A model generated the notes under the pieces. That model saw nothing but the letters and a program-made list of their open reading frames with translations. It was not told where the DNA came from and searched no databases. DNA of 64,000 nucleotides from Frigoribacterium sp. VKM Ac-2836. GTDB taxonomy: Bacteria > Actinomycetota > Actinomycetes > Actinomycetales > Microbacteriaceae. The position numbers were made by a program, and so were the translations under genes. Of the stretch, positions 3,141 to 62,299 are shown one piece after another (position 1 is the stretch's first letter; each line of letters begins with the position of its first letter). The DNA is taken from assembly GCF_013248995.1 (NCBI RefSeq), contig NZ_JABRPK010000004.1:62001-126000 (forward strand), written 5' to 3'.

Positions 3141-3191
3141 ACGACCGAGCCCGCGCCTCCTGAATCGATCAGGAGGCGCGGGTTCGGTCGT
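3141..3191. terminator. Bidirectional terminator between ndk and the DsbA-like gene
   Basis: Two 23-base arms (3141-3163 and 3169-3191) pair with a single G-T exception around a 5-base loop, between two convergent genes. The stem contains the recurrent word GCGCCTCCT on one arm and its complement AGGAGGCGC on the other. There is no long T-run, as is usual in high-GC actinobacteria. Confidence 0.85.
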
Positions 3192-3208
3192 GTCGACGGC
3201 TCGCGTCG

Positions 3209-4132
3209 TCAGGGGGTCGGCGTCGCCGTCGAGCCCTCGGGGTCGCCCGTGCCGGCGTCGCCGGTCGGCGCGCCGTTCTGCACCTCGGCGACGAACTGCG
3301 CGAAGGCGCTCGCGTCGGTCAGCGAGCCCTGGTACTGCTGACCGTTCACCAGGACGAGCGGGGTGCTGGCCAGCTTGTCGAGCGACGAGTTCGGGATCGG
3401 GTCGTTCAACGCGCGTTGGGTGGCCGAGGCGACCCAGTCCTCGAAGTCGCCACCCGTGATGCACGAGGGGATCTGGTCGTCGGTCGCGCCGGCACCCTGC
3501 ACCGCCGTGACGAGCTCGTCGTTCGTCAGGCCTCGGGTGTTCTCTTCGGGTTGTTGTGCGAAGAGGGCCGTGTTGACGTCGAGGGCCTTGTCGGGCTGGT
3601 AGTTCGCGACGCAGGCGAAGGCGTTGGCGGCGCGGGTCGAGTATCGGCTGCCTTGCGAGGCGTTGTCGAGGAACCCGATGGGGTGCAGCTCGAGGGTGGC
3701 GGCACCACTCGAGACGGCTTCGGTGAGTTGCTCGGCGTTGGTCGTGTCGAACTGGCCGCAGAACGGGCACATGTAGTCGAGGTAGACCACGATCGACGGC
3801 ACGGAACCGGAGGCGCTCGGGGCCGGGGTCGGGGTGGCGTCGGCGGCCAGGGCACCGCTCGAGACGGCGGTGACCGCGCCGTTCGAGCCCTCGAGGAGCA
3901 GGCCGTCGCTCGCCATGTTCGCCGGGCCGGGCCCGGCCGGCTTGATCGACTGCGTGACGACGAGCGCGACGACGGCGAGCACGGCGACGACGCCGACGAT
4001 CAGCCCGCCCTGCAGGAGCCACTTGTTGCGTCGTCGCCGTCGGGCCTCGGCCTCACGGGTGATGCGTGCCTTCTCGCGGGCCGCCTCGCGGCGCTCTTTC
4101 TTGGTGGCGGGGGAGTCGCTGGGTGGAGTCAT
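3209..4132 (-). CDS. Membrane-anchored DsbA-family thiol oxidoreductase
   Basis: A 307-residue protein with a highly basic cytoplasmic N-terminus (RRRRR near 31-35), one transmembrane helix (about 39-60), a Pro/Ala-rich spacer and an extracytoplasmic thioredoxin-fold domain. The active-site motif CPFC is at 122-125 inside VYLDYMCPFCGQF, and a second cysteine pair lies in FACV and IPSCITGG. The cis-Pro loop (TPLVLVNG) is near the C-terminal third. It probably forms disulfides in exported proteins. The next gene upstream, a VKOR homologue, is the expected quinone-linked partner that reoxidises it. Start: ATG with GAGGA 10 nt upstream. Confidence 0.9.
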   Translation of the reverse strand: MTPPSDSPATKKERREAAREKARITREAEARRRRRNKWLLQGGLIVGVVAVLAVVALVVTQSIKPAGPGPANMASDGLLLEGSNGAVTAVSSGALAADATPTPAPSASGSVPSIVVYLDYMCPFCGQFDTTNAEQLTEAVSSGAATLELHPIGFLDNASQGSRYSTRAANAFACVANYQPDKALDVNTALFAQQPEENTRGLTNDELVTAVQGAGATDDQIPSCITGGDFEDWVASATQRALNDPIPNSSLDKLASTPLVLVNGQQYQGSLTDASAFAQFVAEVQNGAPTGDAGTGDPEGSTATPTP

Positions 4133-4252
4133 CAGTCCTCGTCGTGGTCCAGGGGTCGTCAGGACAGCGTGGCGAGGTCGCCCTCGATTCTGCTGGGAGC
4201 AGCCTGTGTGCGGAATCCGCCGACGGGCGGAAGCGACGCGAGGAGGCGCGGG

Positions 4253-4882
4253 TCAGCCGAACATCGTCGGCAGCAGCAGCGGGAACGCCACGACGATCGT
4301 GGTCGCCACCACGACGTAGTTGAGCACCGGCAGCACCCACGAGTACGGCAGGAACCGTGCCGCCGCCCGTTGGACCGGCCCCTCGGGGACCGTGACACCC
4401 CGAGCGAGGCCCCACACCGTGAAAACCCAGAACAGCGGGATGGTGACGAGCCAGACGAGCATGCACCACGGGCACAAGGCCCCGATCACGAAGACCGTCT
4501 GCGTGAAGAGCCAGGTGACGAACACCCAGGCGAGGACGAGCCCGACCTCGAACGCCAGCCAGAACCACCGCGCGAAGCGGGCACCCGCCAGGAGTCCGAG
4601 GCCCACGGCCACCGGAGCGGCGAAGCCGATGAGGCCGAGGATCGGGTTGGGGAAGCCGAAGAGCGACGCCTGCCAGCTGTTGATGACCGGGGAGCAGCCC
4701 ACGAACGGGTTGACGTCGCAGCCGAGCGCCGCGCCCGGGTTCTCGAGCAACCGGAACTTGTCGAGCGTGAGGGCGAAGGCCCCGACCAGGCCGCCGAGAC
4801 CGGCGACGACGAGCAGCACGGCCGCGACGTACGGGGTGCGGCCGGTGGGCAGGGTCACGGCCCGAGGCCTCTCGACGGTCAC
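4253..4882 (-). CDS. Vitamin K epoxide reductase (VKOR) family protein
   Basis: A 209-residue polytopic membrane protein with the loop cysteines Cys55 and Cys63 (GCDVNPFVGCSPV) and the quinone-site motif CPWC at 137-140. These four cysteines are the standard bacterial VKOR set, which passes electrons from reduced DsbA-like proteins to menaquinone. Four to five hydrophobic helices are visible. The gene precedes the DsbA-like gene on the same strand with a 120-bp gap, consistent with a disulfide-bond operon. The GTG start is 209 codons from the stop and I found no better internal start. An AGGAGGCGC word lies directly after the stop. Confidence 0.9.
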   Translation of the reverse strand: MTVERPRAVTLPTGRTPYVAAVLLVVAGLGGLVGAFALTLDKFRLLENPGAALGCDVNPFVGCSPVINSWQASLFGFPNPILGLIGFAAPVAVGLGLLAGARFARWFWLAFEVGLVLAWVFVTWLFTQTVFVIGALCPWCMLVWLVTIPLFWVFTVWGLARGVTVPEGPVQRAAARFLPYSWVLPVLNYVVVATTIVVAFPLLLPTMFG

Positions 4883-5313: not shown

Positions 5314-8175
5314 GTGGTGAACGACAACACAGACAACGACGGACGTCCGAAGAAGAGAAGGGGATTGTTCGCAGGCCTCAGGGCTCGCCAGGCGGCGCTC
5401 GACGCCGGCCCGGTGACGAGCCCCGACACGCAGCAGAGAGCACTCCCTTCACCCGTCCGGACGACAGACGACGCCCAGGAGGCATCACCCGTGACCCACG
5501 AGACCGAGACCACCGACGAGCAGGTCGCGGCCCAGGCCCCGACCTCCGACGTCGTCGCCACCGACGCGGTCGCCGAGGCGTTCGTCGCCGGGGCGACCGA
5601 GCCGGCGCCCACCGACGAGGCCACGACCGACGCATCCTCGTCGCCGATCCCGGCGAACCTGACGACCACGTCCCTCATCTTCCACGCCCCCGAGATCAGC
5701 GTCCTCCCGGCGCGCCCCGGTCGTCGGCAGCGTGACGACCGCGACGACCGATACGACGCCGACGACTCGTGGGAGCACGACCGCGAGGGCGACGACGACC
5801 GCGACGATCGTGACGACCGCGAGCAGCAGCCGGCCTCGCGTCGCCGCCAGCGTGGCCGCTCGCAGGACCGCGAGGAGCGCGATTCCGAGACCCGTGGGCG
5901 CGAGCGCGCCCCGCGCCAGGCCGAGCTCATCACGGAGCCCCAGCGCATCAAGGGCTCGACGCGTCTCGAGGCGAAGAAGCAACGCCGCCGCGACGGCCGC
6001 GACGCCGGACGCCGACGCACCGTCATCACCGAGGCCGAGTTCCTCGCCCGCCGCGAGAGCGTCGATCGCAAGATGATCGTCCGTTCGTCCGGCGACCGCA
6101 TCGAGATCGGTGTGATGGAAGACGGCACCCTGGCCGAGCACTACGTCGCCAAGGCCCAGAACGTCTCGCTCATCGGCAACGTGTACCTGGGACGCGTGCA
6201 GAACGTCCTGCCCAGCATGGAAGCCGCCTTCGTCGACATCGGACGCGGTCGCAACGCCGTCCTGTACTCGGGCGAGGTCGACTGGGACTCGCTGTCGTCG
6301 GGCAACCAGCCCCGCCGCATCGAACTGGCTCTCAAGCCCGGCGACCGCGTGCTCGTCCAGGTCACGAAAGACCCGGTGGGCCACAAGGGCGCCCGTCTCA
6401 CGAGCCAGATCTCGTTGCCGGGCCGCTACCTCGTGTACGTCCCGAACGGCTCGATGAACGGCATCAGCCGCAAGCTGCCCGACACCGAGCGCGCACGCCT
6501 CAAGAAGATCCTGAAAGAGGCCCTGCCCGAGAACACCGGCGTGATCGTGCGCACGGCGGCCGAAGGGGCGACCGAAGAGCAGCTGACCCTCGACGTCAAG
6601 CGCCTCACGAACCAGTGGGCCGACATCGAGAAGAAGGTCGCGGCGGGCAACGCCCCGAACCAGTTGCACTCCGAGCCCGATCTGCTGATCAAGATCGTGC
6701 GCGACGTCTTCAACGAGGACTTCCACGAGATGGTCATCGACGGTGACGAGGCCTTCGAGACGCTGCAGTCGTACCTCTCGGCCGTGGCCCCCGACCTCAT
6801 GGACCGGGTGAAGCGCTACGAGGGCGACAAGGACGCGTTCGACGAGTACCGCCTCAACGAGCAGATCGAGAAGGCACTCGACCGCAAGGTCTGGCTGCCC
6901 TCTGGCGGCTCGCTGGTCATCGACCGCACCGAGGCGATGACCGTCGTCGACGTCAACACCGGCAAGTTCGTCGGCTCGGGCGGCAACCTCGAGGAGACCG
7001 TCACCAAGAACAACCTCGAGGCCGCCGAGGAGATCGTCCGTCAACTCCGTCTGAGGGACATCGGCGGCATCATCGTCGTCGACTTCATCGACATGGTCCT
7101 CGAATCCAACCGCGACCTCGTGTTGCGTCGCCTGGTCGAGTGCCTCAGCCGTGACCGCACCAAGCACCAGGTGGCCGAGGTCACCTCTCTCGGACTGGTG
7201 CAGATGACGCGCAAGAAGCTGGGCCTCGGCCTGGCCGAGTCGTTCTCCGAGGCCGGCAGCGCCGCCCGTGTCCAAGAGCAGCAGCCCCGCAAGGGCGGCC
7301 AGCAGGGCGACCGCCGACGCGGCGGCCAGGCCGGGGGCCCGGGCAAGTCGGGTGGCAACGCGCACAACACGGGCGCCGGCGCCGGCACCGCTCCGCAGTC
7401 CGGTCGTGGCGGTCCCTCGTCGCCGACCGGTGGGGCGCACCCGACGACGGGTACCCACGCCATCACCGACGACGTCAAGAACGCCCTCTCGCGCATCGCG
7501 GCGAGCACCATCGCCCACGCCGAAGAAGGCAGTCCCAAGGACGACGACGCGGCCAGCCAGGCCGCGGCGGCCGTCGAGGCCGCCATCGACGCCGCCGCCG
7601 CGAGTGCCACCAAGGCCGAGCCGGCCGCCGAGGCGTCCACCGACTCGGGCGACGAAGGGCGTCGTGGTCGTTCGGGTCGCAAGGGCCGTCGTGGTTCGTC
7701 GCGCGCCCAGCGCGAGGCCGGCGAGACGGCCGACGAGGCGGCACCCGCCGCGTCGGCCGCCACCGACGCGACCTCCGGTGTGATCGAGGTCCCCGCCGCG
7801 GCACCGGCCGAGCGGACGGCCGCTCCCGTGACCGCGCCCGCCGACGAACCCACGGAGGCGCGGGTCGAGAAGACCACCGAGCGTCGCCGCTCCTCGGCCA
7901 CGGTCTCGACCCCGGACGCCACGGTCGCGATCCTCGACATCCCGGTGGCGACCACGCAGCGCGAGCCGCGTCGCATCAGCAGCCAGGACGCCGAGCAGCT
8001 CCTCGACTCGGTGCTGGGCGCGCTGCCCGAGCCGAAGCAGCCCGGTCAGGGACGCTCGCGCTCGCGCCGGGCCTCCAGCCAGGGCACGACCGCGGCGGCT
8101 CCTGCCGAGCCGACGACGGCCGGCGAGTCCGGTCCGTTCATCCTCGGCGTGGGGGTCAGCTCCGACGATCTCTGA
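5314..8175 (+). CDS. rne: Ribonuclease E/G family endoribonuclease
   Basis: The central RNA-processing and decay endonuclease, 953 residues from the GTG at 5314. I prefer this start to in-frame codons back to 5221 because VNDNTDNDG begins here and GAGGAG lies 10 nt upstream. A disordered acidic/basic N-terminal region (about 1-245) precedes the S1 domain (VSLIGNVYLGRVQNVLPSMEAAFVDIG, about 280-330). The catalytic metal aspartates follow in VDVNTGKF (about 545) and VVDFIDM (about 590), and then RKKLGLG. The C-terminal 300 residues are low-complexity Gly/Ala/Glu with RGRS-like basic patches, the likely partner-binding tail. Actinobacterial RNase E places the catalytic core in the middle like this. 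Confidence 0.95.
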   Translation: MVNDNTDNDGRPKKRRGLFAGLRARQAALDAGPVTSPDTQQRALPSPVRTTDDAQEASPVTHETETTDEQVAAQAPTSDVVATDAVAEAFVAGATEPAPTDEATTDASSSPIPANLTTTSLIFHAPEISVLPARPGRRQRDDRDDRYDADDSWEHDREGDDDRDDRDDREQQPASRRRQRGRSQDREERDSETRGRERAPRQAELITEPQRIKGSTRLEAKKQRRRDGRDAGRRRTVITEAEFLARRESVDRKMIVRSSGDRIEIGVMEDGTLAEHYVAKAQNVSLIGNVYLGRVQNVLPSMEAAFVDIGRGRNAVLYSGEVDWDSLSSGNQPRRIELALKPGDRVLVQVTKDPVGHKGARLTSQISLPGRYLVYVPNGSMNGISRKLPDTERARLKKILKEALPENTGVIVRTAAEGATEEQLTLDVKRLTNQWADIEKKVAAGNAPNQLHSEPDLLIKIVRDVFNEDFHEMVIDGDEAFETLQSYLSAVAPDLMDRVKRYEGDKDAFDEYRLNEQIEKALDRKVWLPSGGSLVIDRTEAMTVVDVNTGKFVGSGGNLEETVTKNNLEAAEEIVRQLRLRDIGGIIVVDFIDMVLESNRDLVLRRLVECLSRDRTKHQVAEVTSLGLVQMTRKKLGLGLAESFSEAGSAARVQEQQPRKGGQQGDRRRGGQAGGPGKSGGNAHNTGAGAGTAPQSGRGGPSSPTGGAHPTTGTHAITDDVKNALSRIAASTIAHAEEGSPKDDDAASQAAAAVEAAIDAAAASATKAEPAAEASTDSGDEGRRGRSGRKGRRGSSRAQREAGETADEAAPAASAATDATSGVIEVPAAAPAERTAAPVTAPADEPTEARVEKTTERRRSSATVSTPDATVAILDIPVATTQREPRRISSQDAEQLLDSVLGALPEPKQPGQGRSRSRRASSQGTTAAAPAEPTTAGESGPFILGVGVSSDDL

Positions 8176-8193: not shown

Positions 8194-8997
8194 GTGCCTC
8201 TGACCCAGCCCGGAACTCCGACCGTCAGGTCGAGGTTCCGGGCTGTGTCCGTCTCCGTCTCGGGGCCCGAGGGGCGTGAGCGTCTGCTCGTCGCGGCCAC
8301 GGCACTCGTGGTCGTGCTCGTCGCCCGCTTCGTCCTCGGACTCGTCGCGCTGGTCGGCTCCGCCGTCGGGTTCTCGGTGACGGCGTTCCCCAGTGGGTTC
8401 GTGGCGACGCCCGTCGGGCAGTTCCTCGGCAGCTTCGTGCTCTACCCCTTCCCGTTCTACGTCGCCGCGTTCGTGGTGCTCGCCGCCGTCCGCCCGCTCA
8501 CGCCGCGGTCCGACCTTCGCAGTGTGGTCCGCCACGCGGTGGTCGCCGGTGCCGTCGGCACCGTCGCGCTGGCGGTCGTCGGCATCGTGCCCGGCATCGT
8601 GCTCTCGATCAGCGGTGGCACCTGGGTGAACCTGGCGCTCTACCTCACGACCGTCCCGCTCTCGGCCGGCATCGTCGACACCGCTCTGCTCGTCGCCGGT
8701 GCGGTTCTCGCTCGATCGTGGCTGGGTGGCGGGGGCGGCGACGAGGTCTGGGCGGCCGAACCCGCACCTCGTGCCGCCGAGGCCGAGCCGGTCGACGACG
8801 CGACCGACCTCGTCGACGACGCCGCGCCTCCTGTCGGCGGCGTGCGAGCCGGCCGTGTCCCGACGGTCCTCGACACAGGGCCGTCGGCACCCGTCGCCCC
8901 GCCCGAACGTCCCGTCGTGCCGGCGCATCCGGCGCCCGCCCCCGCCGACTGGTCACGCTTCGCGCCCCCGACCGGTCAGAGCGAGGACGAGCGGTGA
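8194..8997 (+). CDS. Four-helix membrane protein of unknown function
   Basis: A 267-residue protein with about four hydrophobic segments (roughly residues 30-60, 80-100, 125-150 and 155-180). An Ala/Pro-rich cytoplasmic tail ending in SRFAPPTGQSEDER follows. I do not recognise the family. It leads an apparent operon with the CECGN permease and TIGR03943 protein; its stop overlaps the permease start as GTGA. The first 17 codons coincide with a hairpin that looks like the rne terminator. The true start may therefore be the in-frame GTG at 8245 (VSVSVSGPEG), although a leaderless -10 suits the 8194 start. Confidence 0.7.
   Translation: MPLTQPGTPTVRSRFRAVSVSVSGPEGRERLLVAATALVVVLVARFVLGLVALVGSAVGFSVTAFPSGFVATPVGQFLGSFVLYPFPFYVAAFVVLAAVRPLTPRSDLRSVVRHAVVAGAVGTVALAVVGIVPGIVLSISGGTWVNLALYLTTVPLSAGIVDTALLVAGAVLARSWLGGGGGDEVWAAEPAPRAAEAEPVDDATDLVDDAAPPVGGVRAGRVPTVLDTGPSAPVAPPERPVVPAHPAPAPADWSRFAPPTGQSEDER
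8207..8244 (+). terminator. Hairpin after rne, inside the first codons of the next frame
   Basis: Perfect 10-base arms AGCCCGGAAC (8207-8216) and GTTCCGGGCT (8235-8244), with an inner GACC/GGTC pair. It lies 30-70 nt after the rne stop and so looks like the rne terminator, yet overlaps codons 5-17 of the frame beginning at 8194. An in-frame GTG at 8245 directly follows it. Confidence 0.6.
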
Positions 8998-10046: not shown

Positions 10047-10917
10047 CCCTGCTCCCCGCCCCTGGCGCCGACTGCTCGACCGGTGGCAGGGGGTGCTGCT
10101 GACTCTCGTCGTCGGCGTCGCCACCCTCTGGCTCGCCGCCACCGGCCAACTCGTGCTGTACATCCACCCCCGGTACGACGTCTTCACCGTCGTGATGATC
10201 GTCATCGGCATGCTGCTGTCGCTCGCCACGCTCGCGTTCTCACCCGTCAGGGGCGAGGACGAGGGCGACCACGCGGGCCACGACCACGCGGACCACGACC
10301 ACGACGGGCGGCTCGAGACGGCCGCCGTGCCTGCGGTCGAGGACGGCCTCCGCCCGCGACGACGCCGTCCGCTGGCCACCGGCGTCCGGCGCCTGGCCTT
10401 CTCGGCCGGTCTCGTCGTCACGACCGCCATCGCGATCGCCGTCGTCGCCGTGCCGCCGGCCACCCTCACCAGCGCCACCGCCGGGCAGCGCGACGTCAAC
10501 TCGTCGACCGCGGCGCTCGACCGCACCTCCGTGGCCGACGCGACCAGCGCCTCCTCGGACGCCTACCGCTCGTTCAGTGTGCTGGACTGGGCCGGATTGC
10601 TGCGCCAGACCACCGACCTCGCGTTCTACCAGGGCAAGACCGCCGACGTCGTCGGGTTCGTCACGCCGTCGGACACCGACCCCGACGACGTGTTCTACGT
10701 CTCGCGATTCGTGATCACGTGCTGCGCGGTCGACGCCCAGCCCGTCGGCGTCCCCGTGTACCTGCCGGGTTGGCAGGACCAGGTCGCCGCCGACGACTGG
10801 GTCGAGGTGACCGGGGGCTTCGACACGAACCGCAGCAGCTCGAGCCAGGACCCCGTCGCCCTCGTGCCGGACGACGTCACCACCGTGGGACAGCCCAGTG
10901 ACCCGTACCTCTACTGA
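10036..10917 (+). CDS. TIGR03943 family protein with histidine-rich loop
   Basis: This 293-residue partner of the permease overlaps its end by 11 nt. Two N-terminal transmembrane helices (about 20-45 and 50-70) are followed by a His/Asp-rich loop (HAGHDHADHDHDG, about 82-94), another helix (about 125-147) and an extracytoplasmic domain with VITCCAVDAQPVGVPV. The CC pair within that motif is the family hallmark. The histidine cluster suggests metal binding. The start is ATG 10036 (MSPSPAPRPW) rather than 10009, which would lie deep inside the permease. Role inferred: accessory or gating subunit of the permease. Confidence 0.85.
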   Translation: MSPSPAPRPWRRLLDRWQGVLLTLVVGVATLWLAATGQLVLYIHPRYDVFTVVMIVIGMLLSLATLAFSPVRGEDEGDHAGHDHADHDHDGRLETAAVPAVEDGLRPRRRRPLATGVRRLAFSAGLVVTTAIAIAVVAVPPATLTSATAGQRDVNSSTAALDRTSVADATSASSDAYRSFSVLDWAGLLRQTTDLAFYQGKTADVVGFVTPSDTDPDDVFYVSRFVITCCAVDAQPVGVPVYLPGWQDQVAADDWVEVTGGFDTNRSSSSQDPVALVPDDVTTVGQPSDPYLY

Positions 10918-13542: not shown

Positions 13543-15093
13543 ATGGCCACATTCGTCGACCAAGTGACCCTCCACCTCCGCGCCGGAAACGGCGGCAACG
13601 GCTGCGTGTCCGTCAAGCGCGAGAAGTTCAAGCCCCTGGCCGGTCCCGACGGCGGCAACGGCGGCCACGGCGGGGACGTCGTCATCGTCAGCGACACCGG
13701 CGTCACGACGCTGCTCGGCTTCCACCGCGCACCGCATCGGTCCAGTGACAACGGCGGCTTCGGCATGGGCGACCACCGCGCCGGCACCAACGGCGAGACC
13801 CTCGAGCTCGTCGTCCCGGTCGGTACCGTCGTCAAGTCCGCCGACGGCGTCGAGCTGATCGACATGGTCGAGCCGGGCATGCGCTACGTCGCCGCCGAGG
13901 GCGGCATCGGTGGCCTCGGCAACGCGGCCCTTTCGTCGACCAAACGCAAGGCCCCCGGGTTCGCCCTCCTCGGCACCCCCGGCTGGGCCGGGGACGTGTT
14001 GCTCGAGCTCAAGGTCGTCGCCGACGTCGCCCTGGTGGGCTACCCGTCGGCCGGCAAGTCGAGCCTCGTCGCCGCCCTCTCGGCCGCGAAGCCCAAGATC
14101 GCCGACTACCCCTTCACGACGCTGCACCCCAACCTCGGCGTCGTCGAGTCGGGTGACACGCGGTACACGGTCGCCGACGTCCCCGGCCTCATCGAGGGCG
14201 CCAGCGAGGGCAAGGGGCTCGGGCTCGAGTTCCTGCGCCACGTCGAGCGCTGCTCGGCCCTGCTGCACGTGCTCGACTGCGCGACCCTCGATCCGGGCCG
14301 CGACCCCCTGACCGACCTCGACGTCATCCTGCGCGAGCTCGAGGCCTACCCCGTCCCCGACGGTCAGAAGCCGTTGCTCGAACGCCCGCAGATGATCGCG
14401 TTGAACAAGGTCGACGTGCCGGACGGTCGTGAGCTGGCCGACTTCGTCACCCCCGAGCTCGAGGCCCGCGGCTACCGCGTCTTCGAGATCTCGGCGGTGA
14501 GCCACGAGGGCCTGCGCAACCTGTCCTTCGCGCTGGCCGAGGTCGTCGAGGCCAGCCGGGCCGAGATCGCCGCGCGCCCCGCGCCTCCTCGCATCGTCAT
14601 GCGTCCCCGCGCCGTCAACGAGAAGCCCTTCGTCATCCGGGTCGAGGGCGGCACCTACGGCAACGTGTACCGCATCCTCGGTCAGAAGCCCGAGCGCTGG
14701 GTCGTCCAGACCGACTTCAACAACGAGGAGGCCGTGGGTTACCTGGCCGACCGACTCAACGCGATCGGCGTCGAGGACGCCTTGTTCAAGGCCGGCGCGC
14801 AGGCCGGTTCGACGGTCGTCATCGGCCCCGAGGGCGGCATCGTCTTCGACTGGGAGCCGACCCTCACCTCGACGGCCGAACTCATGACGAGCGCCCGTGG
14901 CACCGATCCGCGTCTGATCCAGAACGACCGCCCGACCCGCAACCAGCGTCGTGAGGAGTACTTCGAGCGCATGGACGCCAAGGCCGAGGCCCGCGCGGAG
15001 CTGCAGCGCGAGCGCGCCGCCGGTCTGTGGACCGACGACGAGGGGTTCCTCGTGAAAGAGGGCGACGACGCCGAAGGCGACGAGCGGGCGTGA
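13543..15093 (+). CDS. obgE: GTPase Obg/CgtA
   Basis: A 516-residue ribosome-associated GTPase involved in 50S assembly and stress. The glycine-rich Obg fold (about 1-158; [17 protein letters not shown] and [10 protein letters not shown]) precedes the G domain with G1 GYPSAGKSS (about 166), G3 DVPGL (about 212) and G4 NKVD (about 287). The OCT domain (about 345-425) and a charged C-terminal tail of about 80 residues ending [18 protein letters not shown] follow. The stop overlaps the proB start as GTGA. Start ATG with AAAGAG upstream. Confidence 0.97.
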
Positions 15094-15935: not shown

Positions 15936-16019
15936 CCCGCGCCTCCCGGGGCGTCGTCCGAGCGACCGCCGCCCCGCCGCCGCCCGCGGTCGGCTCTCGC
16001 GGGACGGGGGACCGGCGCA

Positions 16020-38004: not shown

Positions 38005-43095
<5,091 letters not shown>

Positions 43096-44431: not shown

Positions 44432-44434
44432 CAC

Positions 44435-48520: not shown

Positions 48521-48710
48521 TGCGCGCCTCCTCGTGTCGTGTGTTTCTCGTTCTACCCGGCTGCGGCGGGTCCGTGTCCTCGGCGCCGGGTCGGCGCGGA
48601 CCCGCTGCCGAGGACGGCAACCCGCCGCATCGACCACGGCCCGCCACCCCGCGCGAACGGGACGACGGGCCGCGGTGTCGTCAGGACGACGGCGCCGAGG
48701 AGGCGCGGGG

Positions 48711-52650: not shown

Positions 52651-52781
52651 TCCTCCTACGGTGGCCCAGCGCGCCTCCTCGTGCCCGTCCCTCGCAGTGT
52701 TCTGTGTGCAAGGACCGGGCTCCGTACCCCTGTGGACGAGGCATGGAGCCGCCGGACATGCCGGGCGCGTAGACCGGTCGG

Positions 52782-53721: not shown

Positions 53722-54903
53722 TCAGATGCGGCCCACGAGCTCGTCGCGCGGCGTGACACCGGCCGCGACCACGGCCCGGGCGGCGTCACGGGCCTCGTCG
53801 ACGTTCCACAACAGCACGCCCTCGACCGCCCCGTCGTCGCCCAGGTAGTACGCGACCGCGCGCCCGTCGCCCTTGTCGTCCACGACCGTCTCGAGCGACG
53901 CGTCGAGCGTGCCGACCGCCTCGTACGAGATGTCGAACACCTTCGAGTAGTAGTAGGGCGTGTGGTCGTAGACCTCGTCGGCTCCGGTCATGTTGCGACC
54001 GACGACGGGGCCCTGCGACTTCGCGTTGTCGACGTGCTCGACGCGGCGGCGCCCGAGGATGGCGTCGGGGTACGACGCCACGTCGCCGGCCGCGAACACG
54101 TTCGGGTCGCCGGTGCGGAGGTGCTCGTCGACCACGATGCCGTCGTCGACGGTCAGACCCGCGTCGGCCGCGAGCTGGTCGTCGACCGAGATGCCGAGAC
54201 CCACCACGACCGCGTCGGCGTCGAGGGTGGAGCCGTCGTCCAGCCGCAGGTGGACGCCGGCGTCGTCGGCCGTGCCGCTCTCGACGCGACGTCCGCGGGC
54301 CAGCTCGACCCGCGCCTCCTGGAACGTCTTCTCGAAGGTCGATGCGATCGACGCCGGGAAGACCGACCCGCCGAGCACGTCGTCGGGAAACACGAGGGTC
54401 ACGCGGGTGTCGTTCTGTACGAGGGCCGCCGCGAGCTCGGTGCCGATGTAACTGCCGCCCACGACGACGACGTGCCGGCCGCCGCCCGAGAGCGATCGGA
54501 GGCGGCGGTAGTCCTCGGCGGTGCGGAAGTACACGACCCGGTCGTCGTCGGGCAGATCGAGTGCGGTGGGGCTGCCGCCGGTGGCGAGCAAGAGGGCGCC
54601 GTATCCGATGACGTCGCCCGTGCTGGTGGTGACGGTCCGGGCCTCCCGGTCGATCGACTCGACGAGGGTGCGCAGGCGGATCTCGGCACCCGAGTCGGCC
54701 ACGGTCCCGAGGTCGTTGTCCGCCTCGGTGTACTCGGGGTCGGTCCAGAGCTTCTTCGACAGCGCGGGGCGCGTGTAGGGCGCGTCGACGTCGGCGCTGA
54801 CGATCAGCACCGTGGCGTCGGGCGTCGCCTCGTGGATCGCCTTCGCGGCGGCATCGGCGGTCATGCCGCCGCCCACGATGACGTGGTCGAACGATTCGGT
54901 CAT
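53722..54903 (-). CDS. FAD-dependent ferredoxin/rubredoxin reductase-like protein
   Basis: A 393-residue pyridine-nucleotide:disulfide-oxidoreductase-fold flavoprotein without a redox disulfide. It has the FAD site VIVGGGMTADAAAKAI (about 8-23), the NAD site VVVVGGSYIGTELAAAL, and the second FAD motif NVFAAGDVASYPD. A C-terminal reductase domain (YYSKVFDISYEAVG) is typical of dioxygenase-type ferredoxin reductases and AIF-like proteins. It lies just downstream of dps on the same strand, separated by a hairpin. The electron acceptor is not encoded nearby. Confidence 0.88.
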   Translation of the reverse strand: MTESFDHVIVGGGMTADAAAKAIHEATPDATVLIVSADVDAPYTRPALSKKLWTDPEYTEADNDLGTVADSGAEIRLRTLVESIDREARTVTTSTGDVIGYGALLLATGGSPTALDLPDDDRVVYFRTAEDYRRLRSLSGGGRHVVVVGGSYIGTELAAALVQNDTRVTLVFPDDVLGGSVFPASIASTFEKTFQEARVELARGRRVESGTADDAGVHLRLDDGSTLDADAVVVGLGISVDDQLAADAGLTVDDGIVVDEHLRTGDPNVFAAGDVASYPDAILGRRRVEHVDNAKSQGPVVGRNMTGADEVYDHTPYYYSKVFDISYEAVGTLDASLETVVDDKGDGRAVAYYLGDDGAVEGVLLWNVDEARDAARAVVAAGVTPRDELVGRI

Positions 54904-54924: not shown

Positions 54925-54974
54925 GAGGGCACCGCCCGGGAGGCGCGGGTCGCGCGGTCCCGGACGGTGCCCTC
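54925..54974 (-). terminator. Hairpin between dps and the flavoprotein gene
   Basis: 16-base arms GAGGGCACCGCCCGGG (54925-54940) and CCCGGACGGTGCCCTC (54959-54974) with one mismatch. The loop contains GAGGCGCGGG, part of a GGAGGCGC variant of the recurrent word. Confidence 0.75.
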
Positions 54975-56953: not shown

Positions 56954-57906
56954 CCCTCGATCCAGCCCAGTGCCCGGAGGGTCGCGTGGGGCCGTTCGAC
57001 GTGAGCGAAGTGGCCGCAATCGGCGAGCAACGTCGTCCGGGCGTGCCGCACGACCGCCGCCAATCGGTCGAGGTCGGACGTGCGCGCGAAGACGTCGTCG
57101 GCCCCGCTCACGGCGGACACGTCGCAGTCGATGGCCCGCCAACGCGAGGCGTCGTACCCCTGACCCGACCGCGAGGCCGAGAGGAAGCCCCGGGGGCGTA
57201 GCTCGGCGACGAACGCGCTCAGCACCGACCTCGGGACGCGGTCGACGTGACGGAACACGGGTGAGGACAACACGCGCAGCAGTCCGATGCGGGAGGCCCC
57301 CCGCAGCAAGGACACGGAGGCGCGGGGCAGCACCCCGAACGCGGCCCGCAACAAGGTGAACGCCGGCAACCGCACGAGCCCCCGCACCGGGTGGGTGACG
57401 GCGTCGATCGCCGAGAAGGACGTGGCCGACACGACCGAGACGCTGAGGACGAGGTCGGGTCGGATCGCGGCCAGGTGCAGGGCGACGAAGGCACCCATCG
57501 AGTGACCGACGAGGTCGAATTCGGTGACACCCAGGGCCTCGGCGACCTCGACCACCACGGCGGCGGCCGACTCGACGTCGAGGCCGGGCTCGGGGTCGGG
57601 CGAGTCGCCCCAGCCGGGCAGGTCGACGAGCACCGGTCGCGAGACGACGGCGTCGACCTCGCGGGCGGCCTGCAGCAGGGGAGTCCAGGTCGTCCACGAG
57701 CCGGCGGCCCCGTGCAGCATCACCGTCGCCCGCCGTCGGGCGGACGGGTCGGCCGGCGACGCCGCGTGGTGCACGACGGTCGAGCCGTGCGCCGTCTCGA
57801 TCGTCTCGCGGGCGAGTCCGAGCACTCGGGGATCGGTCACCAGGTCGAACGGGGCGTACCGGTCGACGGCAGGATCGACCACCCCTGTCGCCCGGCCCCG
57901 TCGCAT
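56950..57906 (-). CDS. Alpha/beta hydrolase
   Basis: A 318-residue enzyme. The HGAAGSWTTW oxyanion loop (about 65-74), LVDLPGWGDSPDPE, nucleophile elbow VGHSMGA (Ser at about 134) and C-terminal DCGHFAHVERPHATL histidine are all standard for esterase/haloalkane-type hydrolases. A long helical cap is in the middle. The start is ATG 57906, 6 nt after TAGCAT on the minus strand. Substrate unknown. Confidence 0.87.
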   Translation of the reverse strand: MRRGRATGVVDPAVDRYAPFDLVTDPRVLGLARETIETAHGSTVVHHAASPADPSARRRATVMLHGAAGSWTTWTPLLQAAREVDAVVSRPVLVDLPGWGDSPDPEPGLDVESAAAVVVEVAEALGVTEFDLVGHSMGAFVALHLAAIRPDLVLSVSVVSATSFSAIDAVTHPVRGLVRLPAFTLLRAAFGVLPRASVSLLRGASRIGLLRVLSSPVFRHVDRVPRSVLSAFVAELRPRGFLSASRSGQGYDASRWRAIDCDVSAVSGADDVFARTSDLDRLAAVVRHARTTLLADCGHFAHVERPHATLRALGWIEG

Positions 57907-57918: not shown

Positions 57919-58992
57919 CCCGATGATCTCTTCCCGCACGCGTCGCAGGTCCTCGAGCAAGGAGCCGACCAGTACCCAGTTGTCCGGGTCGGGCCGCAGC
58001 ACCCTCACCGGCGACGCCAGTGCCGGGCCGTCGTCGTGCCCGACGCCCGTCGCGTGCCCGTCGGCGGAGTCGGGGACGCGGGAGGCGCGGCCGGCCGGGA
58101 GCGCCTCCTCGGTGGTCCGCGCCAGCAGGCGCACGTCGTGGGCGGCTCGACGCAGGTCTTCGGCGATGCTCTGCACCACCGGGTCGTCGGCCAGACCCGG
58201 GTCGTAGTTGTCGTGGACCGACCGCACCATGCCCACGACGCGGTTGACGAGCACGGTCAGGCGGCGCAGCAGTGCCGCGTCGGCCTCGAGCACGCTGCGG
58301 TTGCGACTCGCGCGGGGGTTGAGCTGCAGGCTCTCCTCGCCTGCGGTGACGGCGTCGACGGCTCGGGCCTGGCTGGCCCGCAGATCGCGGGCCCTCGTCA
58401 GTCCCATGGTCAGCCGGGCCGCATCGACCGGCTCGTCGAGCACGGCGGCGGTCTCGTCGAGCACGGACGCGACGTCGCGGGCCAACCGGCCGACCGCGAG
58501 GTGCGCCGGGGCCAGCGCGACGGGAGGCACGACGAGGGCGTTGATCGCCAGGGCGATGGCGGCGCCGATGATCGTCTCGAGCACCCGGTCGAGTGCGTAG
58601 TCCGGGGTCTGGGCGCCGATCGCCAGCACGAGCATGGCCGAGATCGGCACCTGGTTCGCCGAGCTCGGCGTCAGCCGGAACGCCCACGCCACGAGCAGGC
58701 TCACGACGACGATCGCCAGCACGATCCACGTCGCGTCGCCGAACAGCTGTCCGGCCGCGAACGCGATCAACACGCCGGCGACGACTCCGACGCTGCGCTC
58801 GAGGCCGCGCACGAACGACTGGTTGACGCTGGGCAGCACCACGAGCAGGGCCGCGATCGCCGCGAAGATGGGCAACGGCTGCTGCAGCAGGCCGACCGAC
58901 GCGAACCAGGCGGCCATGACCGCGACGCTCGTCTTCACCACCTGCAGCAGGGGCGTGCGTCTCGTCTGGCGGATGCGCGAGACGATCTTCAC
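57916..58992 (-). CDS. FUSC/aromatic-acid-exporter family membrane protein
   Basis: A 358-residue protein with about six helices in the first 165 residues (AVMAAWFASVGLLQQPLPIFAAIAALLVVLPSVNQSF, RVLETIIGAAIALAINALVVPP), the FUSC pattern. A helical cytoplasmic domain follows (about 170-290) with DVASVLDETAAVLD and a disordered region ending DLRRVREEIIG. Function is export of aromatic or other small molecules by family. The GTG start is 7 nt after a minus-strand TACCCT. The coding DNA contains an inverted pair of the recurrent word (58081-58109). Confidence 0.85.
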   Translation of the reverse strand: MKIVSRIRQTRRTPLLQVVKTSVAVMAAWFASVGLLQQPLPIFAAIAALLVVLPSVNQSFVRGLERSVGVVAGVLIAFAAGQLFGDATWIVLAIVVVSLLVAWAFRLTPSSANQVPISAMLVLAIGAQTPDYALDRVLETIIGAAIALAINALVVPPVALAPAHLAVGRLARDVASVLDETAAVLDEPVDAARLTMGLTRARDLRASQARAVDAVTAGEESLQLNPRASRNRSVLEADAALLRRLTVLVNRVVGMVRSVHDNYDPGLADDPVVQSIAEDLRRAAHDVRLLARTTEEALPAGRASRVPDSADGHATGVGHDDGPALASPVRVLRPDPDNWVLVGSLLEDLRRVREEIIG

Positions 58993-59005: not shown

Positions 59006-59090
59006 GACGGGGAGGCGCGGCGTCGGTCGCGACGTCGGGTCAGGTCACGAATCGGTCACCCCGCCCGCGCCTCCCCGCCGATCGGGTCGT

Positions 59091-60308
59091 GTGCTGGTTG
59101 ACTGCGTCCCCGTGTGGCCCAACTCCGCCGAGGTGCTCCCCGCCGCGTTCGCGAACTCGGGGTTGACCGTCGTCGCCTTCCGACCCCACTCGGTCGAGCC
59201 GTCCGGCGCCGGGTTCCTCTACGGCTACGAGGTCGACACGGTCGACCCCGCCGGTGCGACCTCGACCGTGCTGACCTTCATCGACACCGACACCCGGGCC
59301 GCCGACGGCTCGTCGGTGCTCACCCGCGATCCCGTCACCGGGCAGCTGCTCGCGGTCTGGGCCTACCCGGCCGACCCCATGCTGCCGGCACTCGCCGGGG
59401 CCACCTACCCCGACCGCGTGGCCGACGCGCTCGCGGCTCTGGGCGTCGTCGTGACCGAGCCGCGGCTGAGCGTCGCGGCGTACCGGCCGGGCAAGCGGGC
59501 CGTCATCCGCCTCGACGCGGCCGAGACGACCGTCTTCCTCAAGGTGGTCCGGCCCGACCGTGTCGGGCCGATCGTCGCTCTGCACGAGTCGTTCCGCCGG
59601 CAGGGACTGCCCGTGCCGGCAGTCCTCGCGTCACGATCGGACGGCCTGCTGGTGCTCGAGCGCGTCCCCGGTGTGCCAGCCGGCCAGCGTGTCGTCGAGC
59701 TGGCCGACGACCCCCGTTTCGTCGAGCAGATGGTCGACCTCGGCACGCGCATCGCCCGGGTCGACCTGAGCGCGCGGGCACAGTCCGACGCGCTCGACCA
59801 CGGGGCCTGGCACCGTTCGACGCTGCGCGCCGCCCTGCCCGACCGGGAGGCCGAGATCGACCGTCTCTACGACGAGATCGACCGACGCCGCGCCTCCATC
59901 GCCTCGGACGCCCTGACCGTGATCCACGGCGACCTCCATCTCGAGCAGCTCTTCGTGCACCCGTCCGAGCCGTGGCGGGTCACCGGGCTGCTCGACGTCG
60001 ACACCGCGGGGCTCGGGCACCCGGCCCGCGACGCGGCAGCCCTCGTCGCTCACCTCGTCGTCACCGGGCAGTGGCACCGGGGCAACGGAGACGAGGCCGA
60101 GGCCCGGGCCTGCGAGCGCCTCGCCGACGACGTCACGAGCGCCTGGGTCGACCGTATGCCCGGCCTGGCCGACCGGCTCGCGCCCGGTGTCGCGTCACAG
60201 CTGCTCGCCCACGCCGGCGGACAGGCCACGCTCGGCACCGACACCGGCCGCCGCAAGGCCGTGCAACTGATCGGCGCGGCCGCGGGCACCCTCGCCCGCC
60301 CCGCCTGA
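59091..60308 (+). CDS. Aminoglycoside-phosphotransferase-fold kinase
   Basis: A 405-residue protein. The C-terminal lobe has the catalytic VIHGDLHLEQLFV (Asp at about 282) and metal DVD in GLLDVDTAGLGHPARD. The N-lobe has RAVIRLDAAETTVFLKVV with the ATP lysine. The first 110 residues form a separate domain (VVAFRPHSVEPSGAGFLYGYEVDTV). This layout resembles maltokinase-like or fructosamine-kinase-like members rather than drug-resistance enzymes. The start is uncertain (GTG 59091 or GTG 59112). Substrate not assignable. Confidence 0.78.
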   Translation: MLVDCVPVWPNSAEVLPAAFANSGLTVVAFRPHSVEPSGAGFLYGYEVDTVDPAGATSTVLTFIDTDTRAADGSSVLTRDPVTGQLLAVWAYPADPMLPALAGATYPDRVADALAALGVVVTEPRLSVAAYRPGKRAVIRLDAAETTVFLKVVRPDRVGPIVALHESFRRQGLPVPAVLASRSDGLLVLERVPGVPAGQRVVELADDPRFVEQMVDLGTRIARVDLSARAQSDALDHGAWHRSTLRAALPDREAEIDRLYDEIDRRRASIASDALTVIHGDLHLEQLFVHPSEPWRVTGLLDVDTAGLGHPARDAAALVAHLVVTGQWHRGNGDEAEARACERLADDVTSAWVDRMPGLADRLAPGVASQLLAHAGGQATLGTDTGRRKAVQLIGAAAGTLARPA

Positions 60309-60373
60309 CCCGCCCCCCGTTGCGCCAACGGCCCCCACCGGAGTCGGGTCCGGCGCGCGACGCCCGAGGGGCC

Positions 60374-60379
60374 TACCGT
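60374..60379 (+). promoter_or_regulatory. -10 (TACCGT) of the FAD/Rieske gene
   Basis: TACCGT lies about 37 nt before ATG 60417, with CGGAGG as ribosome-binding site in between. Here the gene has a short leader. Confidence 0.45.
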
Positions 60380-60416
60380 GGCGCGCAGCACCTACTCGCG
60401 CACCCGGAGGCCCCTC

Positions 60417-61889
60417 ATGCCGTCACCCTGGCTCGACGCCGCGCCCGACGTCACGACCGACAGGATCGATCCCAAGACCGTCTACGACGACGTGATCGTC
60501 GGTGGCGGTCTGACCGGCCTGGTCACCGCCCTGTTGTTCGCGCGGCGCGGGCACCGCGTCGCCGTCCTGGAGGCTCGGTCGGTGGGCAGCGTCGCGAGCG
60601 GCAGCGGTTCGGCGTCGATGTCGCTCTTGCAGGGCAGACAGCTCCAACGCATCCGCACCAACACCTACCAGAGCGTCGTGGACGCCTACGTCGCGGGCAA
60701 CCGGGCGGGCTTCGACTGGATGGTCGACTACCTGGACGAGGCCGGGGTCGAGGTCGAGCGCCGGGACGCCTTCAGCTACTCGACGACCCGGGGCGGCATC
60801 GCGGCCGTCGACGACGAGTACCTCGTGGCCCGGAAGGCCGGCCTTCCCGTCGTCAAGGAGTTCGGCCTCGACCTGCCGTTCGGCACCACGGGCGGCCTGC
60901 GGCTTCCCGACCAGGCGCAGTTCGACCCGATGCAGGCGATCGCAGCCCTCGTGGCCGACGTTCGGGCCCTCGGCGGCGTCGTCGTCGAGGGGGTGCGCGT
61001 GACGGGTGTCGACGCGTCGAGCCCGGTGGTGACGCACAGCGACGGCCTCGACGTCTGCAGCCGCAGGGTGCACGTCACGACCGGCAGCCCGGTCCTCGAC
61101 CGTGGCCTCTACTTCGCCAAGCTCCGCAGCGAGCGGTCCTACGGCCTCGCCTTCGACGGCGCCGAGCACCTGCCCGAGGGCATGTACCAGGCGGTCGACG
61201 GTCCCACCCGGTCGTTCTCGGCGGTGGGCGACCGCCTCGTCACCGGCGGTAACCGACACGCGGTGGGCCGCGCCTCCTCGACCACCGCGCTGGTCGACGA
61301 CCTCGTCGACTGGACCACACGCCACTGGCCAGGGGCCCGCCTGACCCACTCGTGGAGCGGTCAGGACTACGGCACGCCCCACCACGTCCCGTTCGTCGGC
61401 TGGCTGCCCCGCGGTCGAGGACGCATCTACCTGGCGACGGGCTACGAGCACTGGGGACTCACCAACGCGGTCCAGGCGGCGATGACCCTCGTCTCGGACG
61501 TGCTCGGCGACCCGGAGCCCTGGATGACCGCCCTGCACAAGCGCGTCACGACGCCGATCGCGATCGCCTCGGGCATCGGCATCAACGCCGCCGACGCCTG
61601 GTGGGCCGCCAAGGGCTGGGCCGGGGCGATGACCAACCGGCTGGTGGCCGTGGCACCGGCCGAGGGCCAGGGCGAGGTCGGACGCTCGGGCGGCTTCGCC
61701 CCCGTCGCGCGCTCCACCGTCGACGGCGAGGTGTGCACCGTGTCGGCCATCTGCCCGCATGTCGTCGGCATCGTCACCTGGAACGACGCGGAACGCTCGT
61801 GGGACTGCCCGGTGCACGGTTCGCGGTTCGCCTCCGACGGCAGCGTGCTCGAGGGCCCCGCGACCCGCGGGCTGCGTCGCCGCGGCTGA
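60417..61889 (+). CDS. FAD-dependent oxidoreductase with C-terminal Rieske domain
   Basis: A 490-residue two-domain protein. The DAO-fold (about 1-390) has VIVGGGLTGLVTALLFARRGHRVAVLEA, SGSASMSLLQG and SGQDYGTPHHVPFVG. The Rieske domain (about 430-485) has the iron-sulfur ligands in CTVSAICPHVVG and DCPVHGSRF (CxH ... CxxH). ATG 60417 with GGAGG 7 nt upstream is better than GTG 60378. Such fusions oxidise or transfer electrons to an amine or sugar acid; the substrate is unknown. Confidence 0.88.
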   Translation: MPSPWLDAAPDVTTDRIDPKTVYDDVIVGGGLTGLVTALLFARRGHRVAVLEARSVGSVASGSGSASMSLLQGRQLQRIRTNTYQSVVDAYVAGNRAGFDWMVDYLDEAGVEVERRDAFSYSTTRGGIAAVDDEYLVARKAGLPVVKEFGLDLPFGTTGGLRLPDQAQFDPMQAIAALVADVRALGGVVVEGVRVTGVDASSPVVTHSDGLDVCSRRVHVTTGSPVLDRGLYFAKLRSERSYGLAFDGAEHLPEGMYQAVDGPTRSFSAVGDRLVTGGNRHAVGRASSTTALVDDLVDWTTRHWPGARLTHSWSGQDYGTPHHVPFVGWLPRGRGRIYLATGYEHWGLTNAVQAAMTLVSDVLGDPEPWMTALHKRVTTPIAIASGIGINAADAWWAAKGWAGAMTNRLVAVAPAEGQGEVGRSGGFAPVARSTVDGEVCTVSAICPHVVGIVTWNDAERSWDCPVHGSRFASDGSVLEGPATRGLRRRG

Positions 61890-62299
61890 CCCCCCGCCAC
61901 CGAACGGTCGTCGGGTCCCGCCGTCACCCACCCATCGCGACCGGGCCACGAGACACGAGGAGGCGCTGGTGGCGTACCGGCGCGTCGTACGCGTAAACTG
62001 TCCCCAGCTTCACCGCCCGGGTGTTCTCCGGTCCGCGCCTCCTCCGGTGCGAGTCGACACCTCGGCGTGACGGGGCTTCGGGGCACGTGCCGTCGTCGGA
62101 CTGCCCGCCACGAAGGTCGCCCGTCACGAAGCCGGTACAGCTGTCCACCGCGCGGCACCCCGCCCCGCACGCATCCGGCGCGACCGTCTCGGTCGCCGTC
62201 CGTCCGGGTCACCGAGCCTCTCGGTGCCCCGCGCAGCACCCACCGCCGACATGGCGGCACAGCACCGTCGACGTCCCGCGTCGACCACGAGGAGGAGCC
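61890..62299 (+). promoter_or_regulatory. Intergenic leader upstream of the SNF2-type helicase gene
   Basis: About 410 bp without a credible gene. TAAACT at 61994-61999 (after GTACGCG) is the best -10, which would give a leader of about 300 nt. Two copies of the recurrent word lie in opposite orientation (61958-61966, 62035-62043). Confidence 0.45.

What the first reader, a model, noticed from the sequence alone, without database searches (positions are those of the whole stretch)
3153..62043. A 9-base word, GCGCCTCCT/AGGAGGCGC, is strongly over-represented across the window
By hand I count about 39 copies. Plus orientation begins at 3153, 8824, 10557, 14581, 19863, 22050, 27168, 27872, 29740, 31388, 32652, 35277, 35854, 36661, 44436, 46716, 48524, 52671, 54312, 58101, 61270 and 62035. 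Complement begins at 3171, 4241, 23281, 24544, 28051, 30434, 32902, 35305, 36802, 37315, 38759, 40791, 44471, 46963, 48698, 50599 and 61958. At about 70 percent GC with independent bases roughly two copies are expected. Codon use explains some coding copies (Glu-Glu-Ala-Arg, Arg-Ala-Ser-Ser) but not the many intergenic ones, where the context widens to CCCGCGCCTCCT. It could be a clade-specific iterated word (like HIP1 or DNA-uptake words), a protein-binding site, or a spreading mini-repeat. Note it contains CCTCC, the anti-Shine-Dalgarno core.
Basis: partly seen in the sequence, partly recalled or inferred. Interest (0 to 1): 0.75.

Follow-up and report, generated by a model that had tools for sequence, protein, structure and literature searches.

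The report
Actinobacterial self-DNA tag word
A short DNA word is repeated about 1,500 times in this actinobacterium and its sister species, sister genera carry their own versions of it, and it looks like the 'own-kind' tag by which some naturally transformable Gram-negative bacteria choose which DNA to take up.

Summary
GCGCCTCCT occurs 39 times in the window (one listed coordinate is off by 10) against about 1.3 expected, and 1,464 times in the 3.27-Mb genome against 63 for the reversed control. The conserved unit is CCGCGCCTCC, usually followed by T. All 16 genomes of the genus (Frigoribacterium, by Obg) have 811-1,861 copies; 103 genomes of other genera have 4-522. Codon use, strand bias and insertion of mini-repeats do not explain it. 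Sister genera of the family have other iterated words: SSGCATCC in 31 of 56, CAGGATCC in two, and a second word CGCGACTCC in one Frigoribacterium. These look like dialects. comEC and dprA matches are in 16 of 16 Frigoribacterium; this genome also has comEA and a Flp/Tad pilus locus. In two of 16 genomes dprA is split by word-free prophages. Best explanation: a DNA-uptake-sequence-like self-recognition word for transformation in a Gram-positive family, not found in the papers searched. Uptake itself is untested; Chi-like or protein-binding roles are not excluded.

The parts
2221..2231 (+). CCGCGCCTCCA, intergenic copy (10-mer, no T)
3151..3161 (+). CCGCGCCTCCT, intergenic; first arm of an inverted pair
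3171..3181 (-). CCGCGCCTCCT, intergenic; second arm of the inverted pair 3151-3181
4241..4251 (-). CCGCGCCTCCT, intergenic
7853..7863 (-). CCGCGCCTCCG, in CDS 5491-8175
8822..8832 (+). CCGCGCCTCCT, in CDS 8245-8997
10545..10555 (+).
14579..14589 (+). CCGCGCCTCCT, in the Obg gene 13543-15093; 10-mer intact in all 11 relatives aligned
15740..15750 (-). CCGCGCCTCCG, in CDS 15090-15935
15937..15947 (+). CCGCGCCTCCC, intergenic, directly after a stop codon
16889..16899 (+). GCGCGCCTCCG, in CDS 16032-17300
18835..18845 (+). GCGCGCCTCCC, in CDS 18378-19403
19861..19871 (+). CCGCGCCTCCT, intergenic
22048..22058 (+). CAGCGCCTCCT, in CDS 21670-22719
23281..23291 (-). CCGCGCCTCCT, in CDS 22716-23720
24544..24554 (-). 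CAGCGCCTCCT, in CDS 23717-24613
27166..27176 (+). CAGCGCCTCCT, in CDS 26365-27495
27870..27880 (+). CGGCGCCTCCT, in CDS 27615-28214
28051..28061 (-). CCGCGCCTCCT, in CDS 27615-28214
29738..29748 (+). GTGCGCCTCCT, intergenic
29765..29775 (-). CCGCGCCTCCG, intergenic
30434..30444 (-). GCGCGCCTCCT, in CDS 29782-30681
31386..31396 (+). CCGCGCCTCCT, intergenic
32650..32660 (+). CCGCGCCTCCT, intergenic
32902..32912 (-). CCGCGCCTCCT, intergenic
35275..35285 (+). TCGCGCCTCCT, in CDS 35252-35845; inverted pair with 35305-35315
35305..35315 (-). CCGCGCCTCCT, in CDS 35252-35845; inverted pair
35852..35862 (+). CCGCGCCTCCT, intergenic, after a stop codon
36659..36669 (+). CCGCGCCTCCT, in CDS 36099-37337
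36802..36812 (-). CCGCGCCTCCT, in CDS 36099-37337
37315..37325 (-). CCGCGCCTCCT, in the overlap of CDS 36099-37337 (+) and 37313-37516 (-)
38759..38769 (-). CTGCGCCTCCT, in CDS 38005-43095
39489..39499 (+). GCGCGCCTCCC, in CDS 38005-43095
40791..40801 (-). CCGCGCCTCCT, in CDS 38005-43095
44434..44444 (+). CCGCGCCTCCT, intergenic, 3' of CDS 43823-44431; inverted pair with 44471-44481
44471..44481 (-). CCGCGCCTCCT, at the 3' end of CDS 44469-45851; inverted pair
44576..44586 (+). GCGCGCCTCCG, in CDS 44469-45851
46714..46724 (+). CCGCGCCTCCT, in CDS 45971-48520
46963..46973 (-). CCGCGCCTCCT, in CDS 45971-48520
48522..48532 (+). GCGCGCCTCCT, intergenic
48698..48708 (-). CCGCGCCTCCT, intergenic
50599..50609 (-). 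CCGCGCCTCCT, in CDS 49682-50701
52669..52679 (+). GCGCGCCTCCT, intergenic
54310..54320 (+). CCGCGCCTCCT, in CDS 53722-54903
54938..54948 (-). CCGCGCCTCCC, intergenic
57315..57325 (-). CCGCGCCTCCG, in CDS 56950-57882
58080..58090 (-). CCGCGCCTCCC, in CDS 57916-58992
58099..58109 (+). GAGCGCCTCCT, in CDS 57916-58992
59010..59020 (-). CCGCGCCTCCC, intergenic; inverted pair with 59065-59075
59065..59075 (+). CCGCGCCTCCC, intergenic; inverted pair
59888..59898 (+). CCGCGCCTCCA, in CDS 59091-60308
61268..61278 (+). CCGCGCCTCCT, in CDS 60417-61889
61958..61968 (-). CAGCGCCTCCT, intergenic
62033..62043 (+). CCGCGCCTCCT, intergenic

Best explanation
The word CCGCGCCTCC(T) is the Frigoribacterium dialect of a DNA-uptake-type self-recognition word of the family Microbacteriaceae. 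Inferred mechanism: during natural transformation a surface DNA receptor (a Flp/Tad pilin or ComEA, not identified) binds double-stranded DNA that carries the word better than DNA that lacks it; ComEC imports one strand and DprA/RecA recombine it. Because word-bearing alleles are taken up and recombined more often, point mutations that make the word accumulate wherever the sequence tolerates them (intergenic stretches away from promoters, ends of genes, permissive codons, stems of inverted pairs) and mutations that break it are replaced. Each genus drifts to its own variant together with its receptor. Shown here: iterated, genus-wide, strand-independent, codon-independent, conserved at orthologous sites, gained by substitutions, other words in sister genera, transformation genes present, absent from two prophages that split dprA. 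Inferred: receptor, uptake preference, transformability.
For: 1,464 copies; 16 of 16 genus genomes with 811-1,861 copies, 103 others with 4-522. Codon shuffle: 149 vs 29.4 (9-mer), 81 vs 5.3 (11-mer), above expectation in all six frame/strand classes. Close relatives (89-93% identical): 10-mer intact in 49 of 59 coding and 35 of 40 intergenic comparisons vs 46% and 43% of other 10-mers; intergenic identity 0.90-0.95 inside the word and 0.5-0.84 in the ten bases on either side and beyond on the 3' side. Copies of relatives that the window lacks differ by 1 substitution in 20, 2-3 in 6 (9 distinct sites), gap inside in 3, unaligned in 11, of 124 copies. No strand bias: 108 vs 104 in 22 stretches of G008, heterogeneity p 0.70. 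Inverted pairs within 100 bp: 22 inverted vs 5 same-strand in 400 kb, 4 vs 0 in the window. Intergenic copies rare between divergent genes (5 in 14.5 kb) compared with convergent (13 in 6.0 kb) and tandem (50 in 24.0 kb). Other words in sister genera: SSGCATCC 5-fold or more over control in 31 of 56 genera, 0 of 47 genomes of other families, 0 of 16 Frigoribacterium; CAGGATCC 1,431 in G019 and 1,177 in G061; CGCGACTCC 442 in G007 vs 47-93 in the other 15. comEC 16 of 16, dprA match 16 of 16, comEA and a Flp/Tad locus in G000, the set that M. luteus uses (passages of PMC4322843). dprA split by an 18.5-kb prophage in G000 and a related one in G006, no copy of the word in either.
Against: No uptake or transformation data for this genus were found. 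dprA is broken in this very strain, so the word is not in use for transformation here now. Com genes do not track the word: comEC is also in 45 of the 47 genomes of other families minus misses (114 of 119 overall), and TadE is matched in only 9 of 16 Frigoribacterium at E 0.001 (short model). Genes of atypical GC3 carry the word as densely as others. No bias to gene termini inside genes, unlike Pasteurellaceae. Spacing more even than random for the 9-mer but not for the 10- or 11-mer. In other genera the SSGCATCC word is not denser between genes than in genes (0.86 vs 1.29 per kb). The absence from the prophages is also what their own base composition predicts (0.2-0.3 expected). No receptor identified.
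Confidence: 0.6

Rival explanations
1. Chi-like recombination hotspot: the word regulates a DNA-end resection machine (an AdnAB-like helicase-nuclease) and is selected because it protects and repairs the chromosome.
For: Chi sites are also genus-specific and over-represented (recalled). Two PDDEXK_1 nuclease matches 3.5 kb apart, as expected for an AdnAB or AddAB pair.
Against: No orientation bias (729 vs 735 genome-wide; 108 vs 104 without heterogeneity in G008), whereas Chi is polar (recalled). No RecC. Ten conserved bases and inverted pairs are not Chi features. The replication origin was not located in G008, so replichore bias was tested only as local imbalance.
Confidence: 0.13
2. Binding site of a chromosome-organising, segregation or defence self-marking protein unrelated to transformation.
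For: Genome-wide spread with a sharp 10-bp conserved unit would fit; the 9-mer is spaced more evenly than random.
Against: Does not by itself explain dialects between genera, inverted pairs or depletion between divergent genes. No polarity, so not a KOPS-type guide.
Confidence: 0.15
3. RNA-level element: terminator stem or 3'-end signal, or anti-Shine-Dalgarno mimic.
For: Denser between genes and at gene ends; inverted pairs form stems; 14 of 22 pairs in 400 kb and 3 of 4 in the window are intergenic.
Against: 124 of 192 copies in 400 kb are inside genes, on both strands, and those exceed codon expectation too; most copies are not in pairs. No Rfam family in the window but a tRNA.
Confidence: 0.05
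4. By-product of codon use or base composition.
For: Some frames are codon-friendly (14.8 and 10.4 of 29.4 expected copies come from two frame classes).
Against: 149 vs 29.4 in genes, 1.5-2.4 per kb between genes, absent from equally GC-rich sister genera.
Confidence: 0.01
5. Spreading mini-repeat inserted as a unit.
For: Inverted pairs resemble small mobile palindromes.
Against: Orthologous sites without the word align without gaps and differ by substitutions in 26 of 29 aligned cases; flanks not shared between copies beyond weak preferences.
Confidence: 0.03

Closest known systems
DNA uptake sequence (DUS) of Neisseriaceae and its dialects
   Same: Non-palindromic 9-12-base word, hundreds to thousands of copies on both strands, genus-level variants with a shared core, frequent inverted pairs linked to terminators, conserved by recombination (passages of PMC3630211).
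   Different: Unrelated sequence; host is a high-GC Gram-positive without the outer membrane; no ComP homologue known there; pilus of Flp/Tad type; uptake preference not shown.
Uptake signal sequence (USS) of Pasteurellaceae
   Same: 9-base word with about 1,500 copies in a small genome (recalled for H. influenzae), mutational upkeep.
   Different: Sequence; USS is biased to gene termini inside genes (abstract of PMC2346458), this word is not.
Flp/Tad-pilus-dependent transformation of Micrococcus luteus (Actinobacteria)
   Same: comEA, comEC, dprA and a Flp/Tad locus as in G000 (passages of PMC4322843).
   Different: No uptake word is mentioned there ('uptake sequence' 0 occurrences in PMC4322843).
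HIP1 of cyanobacteria; Chi of RecBCD/AddAB
   Same: Iterated genus-level words (recalled).
   Different: HIP1 is palindromic; Chi is polar along the replichore; this word is neither.

Membership tests
DUS/USS uptake words | short non-palindromic word iterated genome-wide far above Markov expectation | tested here: met
DUS/USS uptake words | both orientations, coding and intergenic, no replication polarity | tested here: met
   (polarity only as local imbalance; origin not located)
DUS/USS uptake words | not explained by codon use | tested here: met
DUS/USS uptake words | maintained and gained by substitutions at orthologous sites | tested here: met
   (40 kb, 6 close relatives, one with only part of it)
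DUS/USS uptake words | dialects in related genera | tested here: met
   congruence with a species tree was not tested
DUS/USS uptake words | inverted pairs, often at gene ends | tested here: met
   22 inverted vs 5 same-strand; 14 of the 22 intergenic
DUS/USS uptake words | host has the transformation machinery | tested here: met
   comEC 16/16 and dprA 16/16 (2 split) in the genus; comEA and Flp/Tad locus examined in G000 only; TadE matched in 9/16
DUS/USS uptake words | poor in foreign DNA | tested here: inconclusive
   0 copies in two prophages, but that equals expectation from their composition, and low-GC3 genes are not poorer
DUS/USS uptake words | bias to gene termini inside genes (Pasteurellaceae) | tested here: not met
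   a described feature of USS, not a defining one of DUS
DUS/USS uptake words | word raises uptake or transformation; sequence-specific receptor | not testable with these tools
   needs the bench
HIP1 | palindromic word | tested here: not met
   word read directly; reverse complement is AGGAGGCGC
Chi | oriented along the replichore | tested here: not met
   as local imbalance
Chi | RecBCD present | tested here: not met
   no RecC in G000; a PDDEXK_1 pair is present, so another Chi-reading machine is not excluded
mini-repeat / REP-type element | inserted unit with gaps at orthologous empty sites | tested here: not met

The most novel reading that the evidence does not exclude
The first DNA-uptake-word system in a Gram-positive phylum: a whole family (Microbacteriaceae) marks its chromosomes with genus-specific dialects (SSGCATCC, CAGGATCC, CGCGACTCC, CCGCGCCTCCT) read by a Flp/Tad-pilus or ComEA receptor, and prophages answer by integrating into dprA and so shutting recombination of imported DNA off.
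Probability: 0.5. Interest if true: 0.92.

Novelty: new variant of a known kind. Interest (0 to 1): 0.85.

Why it matters
Sequence-tagged uptake has been described for two Gram-negative families (passage of PMC5031613). If this word is one, sequence-specific uptake evolved a third time, without an outer membrane and with a different pilus; it would predict which Microbacteriaceae are transformable, give a ready tag for transforming hard-to-engineer actinobacteria, offer several dialect switches in one family for finding the receptor by co-variation, and show a prophage-transformation conflict at dprA in a new phylum.

Tried and rejected
Rejected: codon or Markov artefact; mini-repeat insertion; ribosome-binding or terminator-only role; replication-polar motif; known RNA family (one tRNA only).

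Led nowhere or gave mixed results: density by GC3 class, no difference; bias to gene termini inside genes, none; spacing, more even than random for the 9-mer only; locating dnaA in G008, not found in the stretches held; a 20-kb top-9-mer screen with a 3rd-order Markov null is not specific: 32 of 63 named loci pass the threshold, many of them Streptomyces and other loci with probably gene-driven words, so the other dialects rest on whole-genome counts and the codon shuffle, not on that screen. A control for CAGGATCC by reversal is weak because CCTAGGAC holds the rare CTAG; the comparison there is between genomes. G065 shows no clear word.

Rows dropped: 4 of 40 stretches (G019, G054, G057, G064) were under 10 kb and left out; searches used 36 and 21 genera. 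In one search, 17 of 80 loci under 15 kb were left out. In one search, 15 of 114 site comparisons had no alignment. One search covered 75 and eight genomes, not all 119. One search covered 75 genomes.

Literature: nine searches. Seen: passages of PMC6370729, PMC3630211, PMC12637031, PMC5031613, PMC4322843; outline and abstract of PMC2346458; listings for the rest. One search found none of four literal words in the library. No preprints or most subscription papers are held, so absence from print is only absence from these searches.

Full report
Observation. Expectation is 1-2 under Markov models of order 0 to 4. The word extends: CCGCGCCTCC 37 vs 0.6, CCGCGCCTCCT 26 vs 0.14. Counting CGCGCCTCC as well, the window holds 54 sites.

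Where it is. The window is G000:C5:62001-126000 of a 3,273,901-base genome that has 1,464 copies against 63 of the reversed word. The closest named Obg in the genome collection is that of Frigoribacterium faeni AS3.2 (93%; next Leifsonia at 81%), inside the 91-100% range of the 16 genomes of the window's genus, and its locus L001 carries the word (10 copies of CGCGCCTCC vs 1.1). I therefore call the genus Frigoribacterium; the genome itself is unnamed. In 119 genomes, the 16 of the genus have 811-1,861 copies (reversed control 63-309), 56 of other genera of the family 4-522, 47 of other families 12-302; a few of these exceed their control two- to fourfold at low counts (for example G023, 151 vs 43), none approaches the density of the genus.

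Placement. With my own gene caller, in 464 kb the 9-mer is 4-6 times denser between genes than in genes (window 2.4 vs 0.42 per kb, C1 1.52 vs 0.35), on either strand, rare between divergent genes and frequent between convergent and tandem ones. Within genes 149 copies stand against 29.4 +/- 4.7 in synonymous-codon shuffles, 81 against 5.3 for the 11-mer, with all six frame-strand classes above expectation. So selection or biased transmission acts on the DNA, not on the protein. No strand imbalance was seen in 22 stretches of G008 (108:104, heterogeneity p 0.70). Pairs within 100 bp are mostly inverted (22 vs 5 in 400 kb; 4 vs 0 in the window), 14 of the 22 intergenic. Upstream of the core there is a weak preference for ACCCG at -8 to -4, unexplained.

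Evolution. In 40 kb aligned to six relatives at 89-93% identity (G009 covers part), the 10-mer is intact in 49 of 59 coding and 35 of 40 intergenic comparisons; other 10-mers in 46% and 43%, GC-rich ones in 40% and 34%. Between genes identity is 0.90-0.95 inside the word and falls at its edges. Of 124 copies in the relatives, 84 are shared, 26 differ in the window by one to three substitutions, 3 have a gap inside, 11 are unaligned. Relatives are not independent: the 26 fall on 9 sites. In more distant Frigoribacterium most sites are not shared, so the stock of sites turns over while the word stays.

Other words in the family. In 20-kb stretches of 36 other genera a word with GCATCC is among the top five 9-mers in 15 and first in 9, not always significant by itself; in named loci it leads in Herbiconiux (L003) and Agrococcus (L013). 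Whole-genome counts of SSGCATCC against its reversal: 31 of 56 other genera at fivefold or more (up to 18.5), 40 at threefold or more; other families median 1.65, 3 of 47 at threefold or more, none at fivefold; the 16 Frigoribacterium 1.5-2.4, like other families. Codon shuffle in 21 of these genera: 448 vs 199, reversed control 51 vs 38; between genes 0.86 per kb vs 0.19 for the control. Two genera without it have CAGGATCC instead (G019 1,431; G061 1,177; other genomes at most 465). G007, a Frigoribacterium with only 811 copies of the main word, has 442 of CGCGACTCC, the other 15 have 47-93. CGCGCATCC to CGCGCCTCC is one base. This is the pattern of uptake-sequence dialects in Neisseriaceae, which share a CTG core (passages of PMC3630211); here the shared part would be TCC (my reading).

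Machinery. comEC is matched in 114 of 119 genomes, all 16 Frigoribacterium among them, so its presence does not discriminate. G000 has comEA next to comEC (L217) and a Flp/Tad locus with ATPase, T2SSF, a DUF4244 Flp-like pilin and TadE (L100), as in transformable M. luteus, which has comEA, comEC, dprA and tad clusters (passages of PMC4322843). TadE is matched in 9 of 16 Frigoribacterium. dprA is matched in all 16, but in two pieces in G000 and G006. In G000 an 18,511-bp insert lies in it (C1 about 604,228-622,738) with serine-type integrase, terminase, portal, head, tail and tape-measure genes; in G006 an insert of about 18 kb, 71% identical over 7.5 kb to the first (its proteins were not scanned). 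Neither holds the word; at genome density the first would hold about 8, by its own composition 0.2-0.3. Prophages that break competence genes (comYC, ssbB) are known in pneumococci and taken as a conflict between prophage and transformation (passages of PMC12637031). Two related phages choosing dprA suggest that transformation matters in this genus; it also means that this strain probably does not transform now.

Verdict. What it works like: an uptake word, probability about 0.6. Whether it is a DUS/USS: convergent at most, no shared sequence or receptor, and the defining test, uptake, is open. Main rivals are a Chi-like site for another resection machine (RecC absent; a PDDEXK_1 pair present) and a binding site of an unknown chromosome protein.

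Noticed in passing
G000:C1 about 604228-622738 (L238, L239); G006:C1 (L241): Related prophages split dprA in two of 16 Frigoribacterium genomes.
   Followed up: partly
L217:8797-12267: One open frame holds ComEC and the C-terminal domain of DNA polymerase III delta (HolA): an apparent in-frame comEC-holA fusion.
   Followed up: no
G000, G005, G009, G010, G013, G014, G015: CAGGATCC is nearly absent in this subclade (4-13 copies; 32-98 in the other nine Frigoribacterium), which might reflect avoidance of GGATCC by a restriction system.
   Followed up: no
L012 (Galbitalea sp. SE-J8): GTCTCGAGAC 28 times and TCCTCGACCA 19 times in 21.5 kb, a different, partly palindromic repeat family (the palindrome is counted on both strands there).
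   Followed up: no
L018 and L017 (actinobacterial MAGs): GCGGCATAC 18 vs 0.5 and ACGGCATAC 8 vs 0.1 in 21 kb: a similar iterated word outside the family, perhaps an older relative.
   Followed up: no
L116-L118 (G003): AGGAGTTGCC 8 vs 0.06 in 60 kb: a possible second word CGGCAACTCCT in one Frigoribacterium.
   Followed up: no
window + G000:C1:1-400000: The reversed word TCCTCCGCG is depleted in genes (7 vs 26 in codon shuffles).
   Followed up: no
G000:C1:1-400000: Weak ACCCG preference 4-8 bases upstream of the core, in genes and between genes.
   Followed up: no
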